Assembly: GCA_030425485.1 (NCBI GenBank) | Contig: JAUIAM010000001.1 | Location: 186,001 to 250,000, forward strand | DNA: 64,000 bases | Reading direction: 5' to 3' | Source of the DNA: Verrucomicrobiia bacterium | GTDB taxonomy: Bacteria; Verrucomicrobiota; Verrucomicrobiia; Opitutales; Cerasicoccaceae | Shown here: positions 6,102-45,200 of the stretch, one piece after another | How positions within the stretch are numbered: position 1 is the first letter of the stretch | How the letters are laid out: every line of letters starts with the position of its first letter | Program-made: the position numbers and the translations under genes | Notes under the pieces: model-generated | What the model was told of the DNA's origin: nothing | Databases searched by the model: none | The model's input: only the letters and a program-made list of their open reading frames with translations

Positions 6102-6118
6102 TGGAATATTTTTTTAAT

Positions 6119-6200
6119 TTAACCACAGAGGGCGCAGAGAGCACAGAGACAATATTCTTCTATTTTTTAACTCTGTGCTCTCTGTGTCCTCTGTGGTTAA
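6119..6200. repeat. Long inverted repeat, CACAGAG family, 22-nt loop
   Basis: A 30-nt left arm (6119-6148, starting TTAACCACAGAG) pairs with a 30-nt right arm (6171-6200) at 28 of 30 positions, around an AT-rich 22-nt loop. The arms are built from short CACAGAG/GCAGAG units. The element fills most of the gap between the alaS start and the leuB stop, so a leuB transcript would run into it and it could form a stable hairpin after leuB. A relative with the same loop length lies at 22259-22326. Similar CACAGAG/CGCAGAG-rich repeats are common between genes in Verrucomicrobiota and Planctomycetota. Confidence 0.85.
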
Positions 6201-6212
6201 TCTATAAATGGC

Positions 6213-9341: not shown

Positions 9342-10472
9342 ATGTCAGCATTGCCATCAGACGAAGTTTTCATGCGGCGGGCCATCGCGCTGGCCGAACG
9401 CGCCTGGGGGCAGACCCATCCCAACCCCCTGGTCGGAGCAGTCATCGTTGAAGACGGCGAGATCGTGGCCGAGGGCTGGCACGAAAAGGCGGGCAAACCG
9501 CACGCCGAAGTGGTTGCCCTGCAAGCTCTCGGACGTGCCCCCAAGCCCGGCGCAACGCTCTACGTCACGCTTGAGCCCTGCTGCACGCAGGGGCGTACCG
9601 GGGCCTGTACGGAGGCGATTTTGAAGGCGGGCATTTCGCGTGTTGTGGGTGGGGCAGTGGACCCAAACCCCAACCACGCGGGCAAGGGCTTTTCGATTTT
9701 GCGGGAAAAGGGCGTCGAGGTCGTCGAGGGTGTGCTGGCGAAAGAGTGCACGGACCTGAACCTGATTTTTAACCACTGGATTGTTAACCAACGCCCGCTG
9801 ATTGCGGCCAAAATCGCGGCGACGCTCGACGGCAAGACCGCCACCCGCGATGGCGAATCGAAATGGATCACGGGGGAGCAGGCCCGGCGGGACGTTCACC
9901 GCTGGCGACGCTATTTTCCCGCTATTGCCGTGGGCTCGAACACTGTGCGCGCGGACAACCCCGCGCTGACCAGCCGCCTGGAGGACACACAGTGTGGGGT
10001 GCGTTTTGTTTTCGACCGCTCGCTGCGTACCGTGCGCGAGCCCCTGCCACAGATTTACGCCGACGAGTGGCGTGAAAATACCATCATCATTACGGAAATG
10101 AAGGAGGCCCCTCACCGCCTCGGTTTGCTGGAAAAGCAGGGGGTGGAGGTGTGGAATATCGCCGGGCAGGACTTTTTTACCGCGTTTAAGGAAAAGTGTG
10201 CCGAGATGAACATCGCCGGAGTCTATGTGGAGGGCGGCTCCAGCCTGCTTGGCTTGCTCATCGAGGAGCAGCGCATCGACTACCTCTTTGCCTATCGTGC
10301 TCCAATATTCCTGGCCGACCCGGAGGCACTGGCCGGCTTGACCGGTCTCTACCCGAGCAAACTTAAGGACGCCCCGCGCCTGCAAAATGTCGTGCACGAA
10401 ACCTTTGGTGACGACCAGCTCATGCGCGGAAACGTCGTGTATCCCAACCCGCGCCCCGCGCCTCTGGTCTAG
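9342..10472 (+). CDS. ribD: Riboflavin biosynthesis deaminase/reductase RibD
   Basis: 376 residues, the usual length for the bifunctional enzyme that deaminates and then reduces the pyrimidine intermediate in riboflavin synthesis. The N-terminal cytidine-deaminase-like domain has HAEVVAL and PCCTQGRTGAC (zinc ligands His, Cys, Cys). The C-terminal reductase domain has KIAATLDGKTATRDGESKWI and GVYVEGGSSLLGLL. No other rib gene adjoins it, and no FMN riboswitch was recognised in the 92 bp before it. Its TAG stop (10470-10472) straddles the left edge of a 163-bp palindromic repeat. The gene is intact. Confidence 0.96.
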   Translation: MSALPSDEVFMRRAIALAERAWGQTHPNPLVGAVIVEDGEIVAEGWHEKAGKPHAEVVALQALGRAPKPGATLYVTLEPCCTQGRTGACTEAILKAGISRVVGGAVDPNPNHAGKGFSILREKGVEVVEGVLAKECTDLNLIFNHWIVNQRPLIAAKIAATLDGKTATRDGESKWITGEQARRDVHRWRRYFPAIAVGSNTVRADNPALTSRLEDTQCGVRFVFDRSLRTVREPLPQIYADEWRENTIIITEMKEAPHRLGLLEKQGVEVWNIAGQDFFTAFKEKCAEMNIAGVYVEGGSSLLGLLIEEQRIDYLFAYRAPIFLADPEALAGLTGLYPSKLKDAPRLQNVVHETFGDDQLMRGNVVYPNPRPAPLV

Positions 10473-10633
10473 GCCGTGTCTTCAAAATAGCTCAATGTCG
10501 CATCCTCGCTTCTTTTTGGTCTAAACTGCGTGTCCTCACCTCGACAAATCTTGATTTGCCTCGGTTCGAAGCCCGCAGTTTAGCCTTAAAAATCATCTTT
10601 GGCTGCTCGTTCCGTATTTTGCAAACACAGCCT
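10471..10633. repeat. 163-bp palindromic repeat element, copy 1
   Basis: The ends are imperfect terminal inverted repeats (10471-10489 with 10615-10633, 16 of 19 paired). Inside lie CTAAACTGCG (10521-10530) pairing with CGCAGTTTAG (10574-10583), ACC/GGT (10538-10540, 10563-10565) and an apical CAAATC-TT-GATTTG (10545-10558). A second copy of identical length lies at 43032-43194, and stem positions differ in a compensatory way between copies. No protein is encoded. The layout suggests a MITE- or REP-like mobile palindrome. It begins inside the ribD stop codon and ends 26 bp before rdgB. Confidence 0.85.
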
Positions 10634-10659
10634 AGCCTGCACAAGACTTTACCTTATCC

Positions 10660-11334
10660 ATGAGACAGCACATTTACCTGGCCACGGGCAATGCCCACAA
10701 AGTGGAAGAAATCGCCGCCATGCTGACGGCTTCTGGACTTGACGTTTCGGTGCAGTCGGCCAAGGCCCTGGGCGGCATGCCGGAGGTGGACGAAAACGGC
10801 GACACCTTTGCCGCCAACGCCCGGCTCAAGGCCGCAGCCCTGTTGTCTGCTGCTCCAGAGGGGAGCTATGTGCTGGCCGATGACAGCGGGCTGGCGGTCG
10901 ACATTCTCGGTGGCGACCCGGGTATTTTTTCTGCCCGCTATGCTGAGCGCGTAGCGCCCTCGGGGCCTAATCGCCACTACGAGAAGCTTAGCCAGCACGC
11001 CTACAGCCGGGCCTGGGGTGAGCTTAGCACCGATGAGCAAAACAATGTGACGCTCCTGGCCGAGCTGGACGGCATCGCGGCGGAAAAGCGTACGGCGCGT
11101 TTCGTTTGCGTGTTTTCGCTCTTAGGGCAGGACGGCACAGAGCAAACCTTTGCGGGGGAGTGTTCCGGGACGATTATCGGCAAGCCGCGCGGTGGAACGG
11201 GCTTTGGCTACGACCCGTACTTCATTCCCGAGGGGTACGAGCAGACCTTTGCCGAACTGGGAGCGGACATAAAAAACCGCCTCAGCCATCGGTCCAAGGC
11301 GGTTGCAAAATTAGCCAAGTGGCTTGCGCGCTAG
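10660..11334 (+). CDS. rdgB: RdgB/HAM1 non-canonical purine NTP pyrophosphatase
   Basis: 224 residues. The N-terminal YLATGNAHKVEEIAAML is the HAM1/RdgB signature for phosphate and base contacts. ENGDTFAANARLKA, VLADDSGLAVD with the metal-binding DDSG, the GFGYDPYFIPEGY loop and the C-terminal LSHRSKAV complete the family set. The enzyme hydrolyses dITP, ITP and XTP to monophosphates and keeps damaged purines out of DNA and RNA. The central part, about residues 105-130 (NRHYEKLSQHAYSRAWGELS), is longer than in many homologues. The last 4 bp overlap the end of the convergent Bax-inhibitor gene. Confidence 0.95.
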   Translation: MRQHIYLATGNAHKVEEIAAMLTASGLDVSVQSAKALGGMPEVDENGDTFAANARLKAAALLSAAPEGSYVLADDSGLAVDILGGDPGIFSARYAERVAPSGPNRHYEKLSQHAYSRAWGELSTDEQNNVTLLAELDGIAAEKRTARFVCVFSLLGQDGTEQTFAGECSGTIIGKPRGGTGFGYDPYFIPEGYEQTFAELGADIKNRLSHRSKAVAKLAKWLAR

Positions 11335-43031: not shown

Positions 43032-43194
43032 AGGTCGCGTCTTCAAATTATCTCATGTCGCATTAATTGCCGCTTTTCGCTCCAAAACTCCTGTCCTCGC
43101 TTCAACAATTCCTGAATTGCCTCAGCTCGAAGCTTGAGTTTTGTACTCGAAAATCGCCTATTCCTGCTCGTTCCGTAATTCGAAGACATGACCT
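43032..43194. repeat. 163-bp palindromic repeat element, copy 2
   Basis: Terminal inverted repeats 43032-43050 and 43176-43194 pair at 16 of 19 positions. Internal stems CAAAACTC/GAGTTTTG (43083-43090, 43136-43143), GCT/AGC (43099-43101, 43124-43126) and apical CAATTC-CT-GAATTG (43106-43119) correspond to those of copy 1 (10471-10633) but with swapped base pairs. The right end overlaps the TAG stop of the Gfo/Idh gene (43193-43195). Confidence 0.85.
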
Positions 43195-44527
43195 AGATGA
43201 GTTCGCTCAGGTGTTTGCTCTTTGGTGAAAGGGGATAGAGGTCGGTGATATGGATGGGCTGTCCGGTGGCGATAGAGCGGTTTCCGGCGGCACCTACCAG
43301 AAGCGAGGCAGCGCCTTGTTCGTGCCCGGCATTACGCCCGAGGTTTTCAGCCGGGGGCTGGTCGGAAAACATCTGTTCCTGGATCAGTGGGTCGGCGCCA
43401 CCGTGCCCGCCTTCGGGCATGTGAACGGGCACGTCCTGGGCGTCTTCGAAGAGGCGCTGTAGGGAAAGTGTAGCGCCCCGGGAAGCTGTGGGCTCGAATT
43501 TGATGTCCTTGTCGCCGGTAATAATGTGGGCAGCATGGCGCTCGAAATACTCGATGCGTCCGGCGTCACCGGAGATGGAAACACGGAAGCCTTCTGCCGG
43601 GCAGTAGGCGTTGAGTGAGTAGCTGGCGATGACACCGCTGCGGTAGCGGATGGTAGCGCTGAGTGAGTCCTCGATGTCGATGCCGGAGCGGAACACATTT
43701 TCGTCGCGTATGTAGCCGCTGTCATCTTCCGCATCGCGATACAGCCCTTTCAGTGTGGGGTCGCCTTCGAGGTTCATGCGAAACGGATCGCCCTCTGACT
43801 CCGGGATACCCGTGTAGCGCGCATAGCGTGTGAGGGCTTCCTGTCCTCGGGCGATTGCATTATCGCGGCCATAGAAGGCGAGCGCGCCCATGGCAAAAAC
43901 GGTCTCGGGGATGGAGTCGATCCACCAGTTGATGAGGTCAAAGTGGTGGGTACACTTATGCACGAAAAGTCCGCCCGAAAGCGCTTTGTAACTGTGCCAG
44001 CGGCGAAAGTAATCGGCCCCATGCGAGGTGTTGAGCATGTAGTCGAAATCGACGTGCTTTACCGTGCCGATAGCTCCATCGGCGATCAACTGCCTGACCT
44101 GGCTCGCGCCCGGTGCCCATCGGTAGTTGAACGTCGTGCGGACGCTGCGCCCGGTGCGGCGGACAGCCTGATCGATTTCGGCAAACTTGTCCGCATCGGT
44201 CGTCAGTGGTTTTTCGCAAATAACATCGGCTCCAAAGTCCAGACTGCGCACGATGAATTCGTGGTGCAGGTGGTCGGGTACACAGACGATGACTGTGTCC
44301 GGTTTTGTCTCCTGGAGCATGCGGTCAAAGTCTTCGACGCCGTAGTCGGCAACCGGGGCGGTGTTGTACGCACTGCACAGGCGCTGCTGATGCCAGCGTC
44401 GGCGCGTCTCGCTGGAGTCGCACAGTCCGACCAACTCGCTGCAGTGGCGATAGGTGTCGGAAATCGGGTCAATGAACATGGGAATACGGCCCCCCGTACC
44501 CACGGCGGCATAACGATGTCGTTTCAT
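43193..44527 (-). CDS. Gfo/Idh/MocA family oxidoreductase
   Basis: 444 residues from ATG 44527 (23 upstream residues rejected). The N-terminal nucleotide-binding motif is YAAVGTGGRIPMFI, with VIVCVPDHLHHEFIVRSLD and the family EKP motif in CEKPLTTDADKFAEI. The C-terminal domain (VDFDYMLNTSHGADYFRRWH, GGLFVHKCTHHFDLINWW) carries the usual His for substrate. NAD(P)-dependent oxidation of a sugar or inositol compound is expected, though members with no signal peptide vary in substrate. It follows the prepilin-like gene after 4 bp on the same strand. Its TAG stop lies across the edge of the 163-bp repeat. Confidence 0.94.
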   Translation of the reverse strand: MKRHRYAAVGTGGRIPMFIDPISDTYRHCSELVGLCDSSETRRRWHQQRLCSAYNTAPVADYGVEDFDRMLQETKPDTVIVCVPDHLHHEFIVRSLDFGADVICEKPLTTDADKFAEIDQAVRRTGRSVRTTFNYRWAPGASQVRQLIADGAIGTVKHVDFDYMLNTSHGADYFRRWHSYKALSGGLFVHKCTHHFDLINWWIDSIPETVFAMGALAFYGRDNAIARGQEALTRYARYTGIPESEGDPFRMNLEGDPTLKGLYRDAEDDSGYIRDENVFRSGIDIEDSLSATIRYRSGVIASYSLNAYCPAEGFRVSISGDAGRIEYFERHAAHIITGDKDIKFEPTASRGATLSLQRLFEDAQDVPVHMPEGGHGGADPLIQEQMFSDQPPAENLGRNAGHEQGAASLLVGAAGNRSIATGQPIHITDLYPLSPKSKHLSELI

Positions 44528-44531
44528 GGTA

Positions 44532-45200
44532 TTAGTTGCGAATGTTAAGCAGGTATTCGTCGATGCGCTCGTCCTCGGCGTCGATGCTGGTGACATGCCC
44601 GTCGGCCATGACCATGTTCATGTGGCCATCGTGCCGGTAGTCCAGGCGGTGTTTTCCACCTCCACCAAAGATGCTGCGACTGAGCGAGACGTATCCAGCC
44701 CCGTTGGATTCGTGCCGACTTTCGACGACGAGAGCGGTTTTTGCGGGATCAGATAACGTGAAAAGCCTGGGGGCGTCTTCGGTAGGTGGGGCACCAGCCA
44801 GGTTAAGCGCGTAGGTCCGGTAGGCGTCCTGCGGGTAGGTGAGCCTATGTGACGGACAGATAAAAATGCTTTTGTCGCCGCGCTGGGCGAAGGGGACCTC
44901 CAACTGCCACATCATGAGCACTTGCCAGGAGACGGTGACACCTGAGTCTGGGTCCTTGGGGTTGGGTTGGATTGAAAGGGGCAAGTCGCCGTTGTTCTCC
45001 TGGGCGAAGTTGATGAGGCCGCTACCGAGTTCGCGCAGGTTACTGGTGCAGGTGACGTTCTCTGCGGAGCTGCGGATGCGGCTGACTACGGGGATGAGGA
45101 TGGCCGCCAGAATGCCGATAACGGCCAGGGTTGCCAAAATCTCGATCAGGGAGAAGCCTGATCGGCGTCTGATGCGCGGGGGTATGCGTGAAGTGGACAT
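44532..45200 (-). CDS. Prepilin-like protein with H-X9-DG motif
   Basis: 222 residues from ATG 45200; a TTG at 45206 overlaps the stop of the upstream gene (TTGA) and would add two residues. The N-terminus is a type IV prepilin/pseudopilin signal: basic PPRIRRRSG before FSLIEILATLAVIGILAAILI, with Glu at position 5 of the mature protein. The C-terminal part shows the H-X9-DG motif (RHDGHMNMVMADGH), the processing-associated domain frequent in Planctomycetota, Lentisphaerota and Verrucomicrobiota. No pilin peptidase or secretion genes adjoin it. The location between a sugar oxidoreductase and a beta-helix enzyme suggests a link with the polysaccharide locus. Confidence 0.9.
   Translation of the reverse strand: MSTSRIPPRIRRRSGFSLIEILATLAVIGILAAILIPVVSRIRSSAENVTCTSNLRELGSGLINFAQENNGDLPLSIQPNPKDPDSGVTVSWQVLMMWQLEVPFAQRGDKSIFICPSHRLTYPQDAYRTYALNLAGAPPTEDAPRLFTLSDPAKTALVVESRHESNGAGYVSLSRSIFGGGGKHRLDYRHDGHMNMVMADGHVTSIDAEDERIDEYLLNIRN

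What the first reader, a model, noticed from the sequence alone, without database searches (positions are those of the whole stretch)
10471..10633. 163-bp palindromic repeat with compensatory changes, two copies
Seen in the sequence: copies at 10471-10633 and 43032-43194 have exactly the same length, terminal inverted repeats pairing at 16 of 19 positions each, and nested inner stems. Between copies the stem bases change in pairs: outer CTAAAC.../...GTTTAG against CAAAAC.../...GTTTTG, ACC/GGT against GCT/AGC, apical CAAATC/GATTTG against CAATTC/GAATTG. Paired changes show that the fold itself is kept, either as RNA, as a DNA hairpin, or by the copying mechanism. No transposase is near. Inference: a MITE- or REP-like family, perhaps still spreading.
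Basis: seen in the sequence. Interest (0 to 1): 0.75.

Follow-up and report, generated by a model that had tools for sequence, protein, structure and literature searches.

The report
Structure-keeping, helper-switching bacterial MITE family
The two 163-base palindromes are copies of a small mobile DNA that is spread through one bacterial order, borrows the enzymes of different insertion sequences to move, and keeps an elaborate one-strand fold while its sequence changes, which suggests that a folded RNA (or single-stranded DNA) is the part that evolution preserves.

Summary
Both 163-bp copies exist as described and belong to a large family of non-autonomous mobile elements (MITEs). In the own genome the terminal pattern occurs 131 times against 10 for the control. 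Insertion is shown: ribD-rdgB adjoin without the element in 3 of 3 congeners, and a relative holds an IS5-type copy with and without an inserted element, TSD TTA. Ends match IS5-group insertion sequences, up to 20 of 20 bases within one genome.

The surprise is the core. Relatives occur in 28 of 372 genomes of the order; 108 of 111 read are 158-167 bp. Sequence diverges while pairing persists: 195 double-change cells against 67.6 +/- 6.7 shuffled. One strand folds better in 107 of 108 elements and carries two tandem G.A motifs, all eight positions kept in 82 of 99 sequences. The ends differ and match different transposase groups. So selection keeps a strand-specific fold. RNA is the likeliest carrier but untested; no orientation bias to genes was seen (33 vs 25), and deleted copies still moved. 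No Rfam match was found.

The parts
10471..10633 (-). Copy A, 163-bp element (structured strand is the minus strand)
   Evidence: CM R2 154.6 bits, E 5.8e-31 (copy A is among the sequences the model was built from); minus-strand fold -59.3 vs plus -43 kcal/mol
10470..10471 (.). Left TA of the target duplication (target CTAG, which is also the TAG stop of ribD)
   Evidence: sequence; TA on both sides in 30 of 33 own-genome rows of lengths 87 and 160-163
10633..10634 (.). Right TA of the target duplication
   Evidence: sequence
10471..10489 (+). Terminal inverted repeat, left
   Evidence: 16 of 19 complementary to the right end
10615..10633 (-). Terminal inverted repeat, right
   Evidence: 16 of 19 complementary to the left end
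10535..10568 (-). Apical twin tandem G.A module: outer G.A/A.G at 10566-10567 with 10536-10537, inner at 10561-10562 with 10541-10542, covarying 3-bp helix between them
   Evidence: columns 79, 80, 85, 87, 110, 111, 118, 120 of A5: expected base in 90-99 of 99 per column, all eight in 82 of 99
43032..43194 (-). Copy B, 163-bp element (divergent subfamily)
   Evidence: CM R2 140.1 bits, E 7.1e-28 (also in the model); minus-strand fold -61.5 vs plus -43.9 kcal/mol
43096..43129 (-). Apical twin tandem G.A module of copy B
   Evidence: alignment A2
9342..10472 (+). ribD, upstream gene; its TAG stop is part of the CTAG target
   Evidence: TIGR00326, 314.7 bits, cut-off 156.35
10660..11334 (+). rdgB/HAM1, downstream gene
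   Evidence: TIGR00042, 164.4 bits, cut-off 145.35
43193..44596 (-). Gfo/Idh/MocA oxidoreductase whose stop codon is at the edge of copy B
   Evidence: PF02894 and PF01408 over cut-off; ORF ends at 43193

Best explanation
The element is a non-autonomous DNA transposon (MITE) moved in trans by IS5-group transposases that recognise its ends. Shown: multi-copy spread, TA (or, in one other genus, TNA) duplications, empty sites, and ends identical to those of insertion sequences; that those transposases do the moving is inferred from the ends. Its ~120-bp core is not a remnant of the insertion sequences compared. It encodes a strand-specific hairpin with two tandem G.A motifs, and selection has kept that fold over the divergence of seven families of one order. 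The terminal repeats meanwhile came to fit different transposases. Shown: covariation, kept G.A positions, strand asymmetry, same core with different ends. Inferred: that the ends were exchanged to follow helpers, and that the working form is an RNA made from that strand, which acts for the element itself (a small stable RNA, or a transcript that binds a protein), because copies lie in either orientation to the genes around them. How the RNA helps the element persist is not shown.
For: Mobility. Helper ends: an 887-bp stretch in G008 with perfect 18-base ends CTAGGTAGTGTTTTCAAA and a 250-aa IS5-family transposase (NF033580, 262.7 bits, cut-off 110); 20 of 20 bases shared between G009 elements and an IS5-type copy of the same genome, 18 of 18 between the G003 element L164 and the own-genome IS end on C28. 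Fold: 88.6% of cells paired; covariation score 0.480 vs 0.143 for the best slid version; 46 elements of other families aligned without structure: 14 of 59 pairs above the 99.9th percentile of 12,534 background column pairs. Strand: RNAalifold -77.1 vs -59.0, 107 of 108, G.U 204 vs A.C 97. Twin tandem G.A. Modular ends: G001 elements L140 and L192, cores 88% identical, arms only 60-63%.
Against: No transcription data. No sigma-70-like promoter in or beside copy A. No gene-orientation bias (33 vs 25), which argues against a cis-acting mRNA role. Three 87-bp copies that lost the apex, and a 39-bp element of two ends only, are bounded by intact or nearly intact ends, so the core is not needed for movement. 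The most abundant own-genome subfamily (D) has lost the inner G.A motif, and 6 of 7 elements of family f8 do not have all eight G.A positions, mostly for want of the outer motif. DNA folding parameters also favour the same strand in 103 of 108, so single-stranded DNA is not excluded. The relatives were found, and their strand named, with a model that contains the structure, so the samples lean towards it. The G.U excess over A.C is modest once composition is allowed for. No cognate intact helper for the ends of subfamilies A and D was found in the own assembly.
Confidence: 0.6

Rival explanations
1. Single-stranded DNA hairpin: the structured strand folds when DNA is single-stranded (replication, uptake), and a recombinase or host protein reads the fold, as for attC sites of integrons (comparison recalled).
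For: Strand asymmetry also holds with DNA energy parameters in 103 of 108 elements; tandem G.A mismatches are stable in DNA too (recalled).
Against: Ends, target duplications and empty sites are those of double-stranded DDE transposition; no such enzyme was looked for; the energy gap is smaller than for RNA (mean 6 vs 16 kcal/mol).
Confidence: 0.2
2. Ordinary MITE: pairing in the arms is kept because both ends must fit one transposase, and the rest is an inert palindrome.
For: Arms match helpers; deleted and diverged copies still moved.
Against: Core pairs covary too: 30 of 41 pairs in helices 2 and 3 have double changes. Kept unpaired G.A positions, near-constant length (108 of 111 are 158-167 bp) and order-wide conservation are not expected of inert filler.
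Confidence: 0.1
3. Cis-acting mRNA element, as described for ERIC or NEMIS (passages of PMC2229807): read with neighbouring genes it stabilises, cleaves or ends their messages.
For: Copies sit at gene ends: 47 of 126 have a stop codon at their very edge, and convergent flanks outnumber divergent ones 44 to 10.
Against: The structured strand is sense to co-directional neighbours about as often as antisense (25 vs 33). The stop-codon placement may be largely explained by the CTAG target, which is rare and often a stop codon: 9 of 34 in the window.
Confidence: 0.08
4. Neutral palindrome correction: template switching copies one arm onto the other and mimics compensatory change.
For: Chimaeric copies joined near the apex (L035, L012) show that recombination at the hairpin tip happens.
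Against: Such copying would remove mismatches, yet the tandem G.A mismatches are complete in 82 of 99 sequences and one pair is G.U in 15 of 18.
Confidence: 0.02

Closest known systems
Bacterial MITEs with TA target duplications and long stem-loop transcripts: ERIC, YPAL, RUP, Correia/NEMIS (passages read in PMC2229807, PMC3733652, PMC10969869)
   Same: 100-200 bp, inverted ends, TA at the ends, stable stem-loop, near genes; insertion into IS transposase genes is also reported for RUP.
   Different: Here the core fold is shown by covariation over an order, with kept tandem G.A motifs on one strand, and one core is found with ends that fit different transposases. In the passages read I saw neither reported for those families.
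IS5-family insertion sequences (NF033580) and, for probable members outside the order, IS1182 (NF033551)
   Same: Terminal repeats, CTAG/TA or TNA targets.
   Different: No transposase gene. Of 59 core-only matches to the six insertion-sequence stretches compared, the longest is 16 bases and the best E 0.002 for one of 52 queries, which is chance level.
REP/REPIN elements
   Same: Palindromic, dispersed.
   Different: REPs are 20-40 bp and linked to tyrosine (RAYT) transposases (passages of PMC3733652); these elements are ~163 bp with target duplications and DDE-type helpers.
Structured noncoding RNA families of Rfam
   Same: Conserved fold with covariation and conserved non-Watson-Crick motifs.
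   Different: No family matched: none of 4227 at gathering score in the window; only one unrelated weak match outside the element in three loci. And this one is mobile.

Membership tests
MITE (non-autonomous DNA transposon) | Short, no transposase gene | tested here: met
   163 bp, too short for one
MITE (non-autonomous DNA transposon) | Terminal inverted repeats | tested here: met
   16 of 19 in both window copies; own genome 44+44 exact end patterns against 0+0 control
MITE (non-autonomous DNA transposon) | Target-site duplication | tested here: met
   TA on both sides in 30 of 33 own-genome rows of lengths 87 and 160-163, one of the 33 being a mis-called end; window copy B, one of the exceptions, has CA on one side
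MITE (non-autonomous DNA transposon) | Empty sites in relatives or paralogues | tested here: met
   ribD-rdgB without element in 3 of 3 congeners; IS5-type copy with and without element in G009
MITE (non-autonomous DNA transposon) | Ends shared with an autonomous helper | tested here: met
   G008, G009 and own C28 insertion sequences; for the own-genome subfamilies A and D no cognate intact helper in the own assembly
REP / REPIN | 20-40 bp units with RAYT (tyrosine) transposase | tested here: not met
   163 bp with target duplications; a RAYT gene was not searched for
IS630-mobilised MITE (as RUP) | IS630-type helper (DDE_3) in the genome | tested here: not met
   PF13358: 0 matches in the own genome; gaps in the assembly remain possible
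Rfam RNA family | Covariance-model match | tested here: not met
Functional RNA | Covariation beyond relatedness | tested here: met
   by empirical controls; R-scape itself could not be run
Functional RNA | Transcribed from the structured strand | not testable with these tools
   no expression data
ERIC / YPAL / Correia | Sequence membership of the named family | not tested
   no reference sequences were compared

The most novel reading that the evidence does not exclude
A mobile noncoding-RNA gene as a long-lived genetic parasite: a structured RNA of ~160 nt, with a twin tandem-G.A signature, that has persisted through an order of Verrucomicrobiota (and probably beyond it) by changing its terminal repeats to ride successive transposases of the IS5 and IS1182 groups. 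The RNA, not the ends, would be the heritable identity of the element.
Probability: 0.35. Interest if true: 0.9.

Novelty: new variant of a known kind. Interest (0 to 1): 0.72.

Why it matters
The review passages read (PMC10969869) describe insertion sequences as the main source of MITEs, that is, remnants that depend on a helper. Here one core is found with the ends of several helpers and is preserved at the level of a one-strand fold. That makes the question 'what does a MITE's interior do?' directly testable, with natural controls: copies with and without the apex, and the same core on different ends. It also offers a candidate new structured-RNA family with about 100 diverse sequences in hand, enough for structure work.

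Tried and rejected
IS630 helper: suggested by TA and CTAG targets, rejected (PF13358, 0 matches). The contig-end element L020/L021 was first read as a possible complete helper; it is read now as the left end of an insertion sequence whose right end is on C28, and the rest was not found in the assembly. A search for it in 132 relatives gave only short chance-like matches in two other genomes. Phage and plasmid collections, searched with copy A: no match.

K-turn reading of the G.A motifs: rejected by eye, as there is no three-base bulge. Reverse-strand matches of model R1 reach 57 bits, so the matches in the 5 genomes outside the order (35.6-60.7 bits with R2) are called probable only; the six such loci re-searched gave no reverse-strand match at E up to 10. 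A pattern scan of the collection of 84,980 species genomes gave 10 stretches. 9 are full-length members, all in Verrucomicrobiota records; one, in Pseudanabaena, is chance (13.6 bits).

Rows dropped before counts: L238 and L253 (truncated), then 11 near-identical sequences, before the 46-sequence alignment (59 to 57 to 46); L211 (insertion), L238 and L253 before the 108-element energy count (111 to 108). Model R2 was built from 99 matches out of 100 loci given. The own-genome burst subfamily D is represented once in A2 and A5. In the gene-context count genes are mechanical longest ORFs, not annotations; 112 of 126 elements had genes on both sides.

Corrected on checking: the core-versus-insertion-sequence comparison had shown me 10 of 59 core-only matches; all 59 were then examined, and the best E is 0.002, not 0.15. 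The eight G.A positions, given per column, were recounted per sequence (82 of 99 complete).

Literature searches that found no report of such a family: (listings; passages read only in three papers).

Full report
THE OBSERVATION. Both fold better than all 200 shuffles on either strand. They are the only two matches of the later covariance model R2 in the window.

A FAMILY IN THE GENOME. The window lies on contig C33 of a 3.81-Mb, 62-contig assembly. Searching the own genome with copy A gives two near-identical full copies (97 and 94%), three at 73-75%, window copy B at 73%, and many matches at the ends only. The end pattern TAGGNYGTGTNNNCAAANN with up to one mismatch occurs 70 + 61 times against 3 + 7 for the reversed control. 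Reading such places gives several subfamilies of nearly equal length: A, B (window copy B), C, E, and an abundant 161-bp subfamily D. Twenty complete D copies were read; the 19 of 161 bp are 95-100% identical (mean 97.8%), and 58 of 171 pairs have identical cores. Element ends lie within about 160 bases of a contig end at 31 places (not counting the two of the insertion sequence L020/L021); the 27 of them that were read are D copies, as expected when recent copies break an assembly. So D spread recently.

INSERTION. Of 33 own-genome rows of lengths 87 and 160-163 (one of them a mis-called end), 30 have TA on both sides, 26 of them within CTAG. Window copy A lies between ribD and rdgB. In all three congeners searched the two genes are adjacent with no element between them. 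In genome G009 one IS5-type copy (L277) reads through CACCTTAGGG, while a 98%-identical copy (L297) carries a 163-base model match at that place, flanked by TTA on both sides. In the nine G009/G008 elements of the listing the duplicated TNA is exact in 7; with L297 it is 8 of 10.

HELPERS. No DDE_3 (IS630-type) transposase was found. PF01609 transposases occur in 9 of 10 genomes of the family. In G008 an 887-bp stretch has perfect ends CTAGGTAGTGTTTTCAAA and a 250-aa IS5-family transposase frame without stops. G009 elements share 20 of 20 end bases with an IS5-type copy in the same genome. The G003 element L164 shares 18 of 18 with the insertion sequence on own contig C28. A G002 insertion sequence starts AGGCCGTGTACGCAAAC, like the G003 element L146, which starts AGGTCGTGTACGCAAAC. 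Beyond the ends, 52 elements compared with six insertion-sequence stretches give 59 core-only matches at E up to 1; the longest is 16 bases and the best E 0.002, which 52 queries make chance level. The ends are modular: G001 elements L140 and L192 have cores 88% identical but arms only 63 and 60% identical, while L192 and L133 have similar cores (87%) and arms 84 and 95% identical. Two G001 and two G002 elements have quite different ends (AGGGCCTGTTCAG...) on a recognisable core, and some f14 genomes have others.

THE FOLD. Eighteen diverse elements, all read on the strand that carries CGAG motifs, form one long hairpin. In the named 61-pair structure 88.6% of cells pair; 195 cells change on both sides (shuffles 67.6 +/- 6.7, 0 of 500 as high); 39 of 61 pairs have a double change; the covariation score is 0.480 against at most 0.143 when partners are slid. 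That structure was derived from these sequences. As a check, 46 non-redundant elements from families f5, f8, f14 and f21, none of them in the first alignment, were aligned by MAFFT without structure. They had been found with model R1, so their choice, though not their alignment, leans on the structure. RNAalifold finds a closely similar hairpin at -77.1 on this strand and -59.0 on the other. 14 of 59 pairs exceed the 99.9th percentile of 12,534 background column pairs, and 4 exceed its maximum. The structure tested there was itself predicted from that alignment. Relatedness raises background scores too, and unpaired column pairs are mixed among the top ones, so this is an empirical comparison and not R-scape.

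WHICH STRAND. Folding energy favours the same strand in 19 of 20 elements (the exception is a chimaera) and in 107 of 108 (mean -72.4 vs -56.2 kcal/mol). DNA parameters agree in 103 of 108 (-37.2 vs -31.0). The strand was named by the CGAG motif or the model's better match, not by energy. G.U pairs outnumber A.C 204 to 97 where shuffling gives a ratio of 1.32; with a structure derived on the opposite strand it is still 132 to 91, against 1.12 shuffled. These are modest effects beyond composition: G.U minus A.C is 107 against 77.2 +/- 12.5, and 41 against 26.1 +/- 10.0 for the second structure. For the 18 sequences alone it is 68 against 58.2 +/- 5.1.

THE SIGNATURE. In 99 CM-aligned elements the eight positions of two tandem G.A mismatches have the expected base in 90, 99, 98, 97, 97, 97, 95 and 96 sequences, while the three base pairs between the two motifs use many base combinations. 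All eight are present in 82 of 99; 6 of 7 elements of family f8 and 4 of 7 of f5 are among the exceptions. In the MAFFT-only alignment of 46 the inner four positions are kept in 44-45 of 46 and the outer four in 39-43 of 46. That tandem G.A of the type 5'-CGAG-3'/3'-GAGC-5' forms stable sheared pairs is recalled, not tested. Copying of one arm onto the other would not keep mismatches.

DISTRIBUTION. Model R1 matches in 28 of 372 genomes of the order, in 14 of 100 genera and 7 families; 24 of the 28 have a best E of 2e-11 or lower, and the other four (best E 2e-7 to 1e-4) are weak. At most 7 candidates per genome were scored, so copy numbers are lower bounds. Of 111 matches read in full, 108 are 158-167 bp and 96 are 161-165 bp. 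In G048 (family f22) the four matches are cut by contig ends. Model R2 matches in 13 of 387 genomes of the phylum, 5 of them outside the order. Because reverse-strand matches can reach 57 bits, these five are probable members only. The G528 elements among them end in AGCAGCCTGTCGG preceded by CT, the ends of an IS1182-family element (452-aa transposase, NF033551 333 bits, cut-off 270) seen in G009. In the collection of 84,980 species genomes the core pattern matched 10 stretches: 9 full members, all from Verrucomicrobiota records (Pelagicoccus, Puniceicoccales, Verrucomicrobiota bacterium JB024), and one chance match. Rfam has no match. Phages and plasmids have none by DNA similarity to copy A.

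PLACE AMONG GENES. Using mechanical ORFs, 47 of 126 elements have a stop codon at their very edge, and 8 lie inside an ORF. In the orientation of the structured strand the flanking genes are convergent 44, both leftward 33, both rightward 25, divergent 10, of 112 with genes on both sides. Some edge stops may be genes cut by the insertion. CTAG is rare (34 in the window, about 233 expected), and 9 of the 34 are stop codons of such ORFs, 19 lie inside ORFs and 6 between them. So a CTAG-seeking transposase often lands at gene ends, and the stop survives; the scarcity inside ORFs suggests that most such insertions are lost. No orientation bias is visible (33 vs 25), which speaks against a role in neighbouring messages.

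RESULTS AGAINST A CIS ROLE IN MOVEMENT. Three 87-bp copies lack the apex yet have element ends, and G031 holds a 39-bp element of two ends only. Subfamily D, the most successful in this genome, has lost the inner G.A motif. So the core is not required for transposition. Its conservation must pay over longer times or by another route.

VERDICT. A MITE family by the five tests made, ordinary in how it moves. It is unusual in that one core, kept as a strand-specific fold with a twin tandem-G.A signature, persists across genera while its ends fit different transposases. That the working form is an RNA is my best guess (about 0.6 given a kept fold); single-stranded DNA is the main rival.

Noticed in passing
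window 6111-6208: Another palindromic repeat (38-base arms, 87% complementary, 22-base spacer, ACCACAGAGGGCGCAGAGAG...) between ORFs; by sequence a different family.
   Followed up: no
L004, L023, L041, L095 (own genome) and L146 (G003), next to elements: A second interspersed repeat with ends like GTGTCNYGTTAGCTTAG sits against several copies at their CTAG junction; its motif GTTAGCNTAG has 18 matches in the loci held, which overlap, and none in the window.
   Followed up: partly
L035 (C56:63958-64119) and L012 (C11:135602-135762): Chimaeric elements: E left half with D right half, and D arms with a C-type apex half, joined near the hairpin tip; their halves no longer match well.
   Followed up: partly
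L150:1503-1711 and L155:1503-1768 (G004): Elements of 209 and 266 bp with similar ends but a different cargo containing other palindromes.
   Followed up: no
L158:1503-1541 (G031): A 39-bp element consisting of little more than the two terminal repeats.
   Followed up: no
L211:1501-1730 (G003): An element of 230 bp, with about 67 extra bases in the apical loop.
   Followed up: no
window, whole: CTAG occurs 34 times where base composition predicts about 233, and 9 of these are stop codons.
   Followed up: yes
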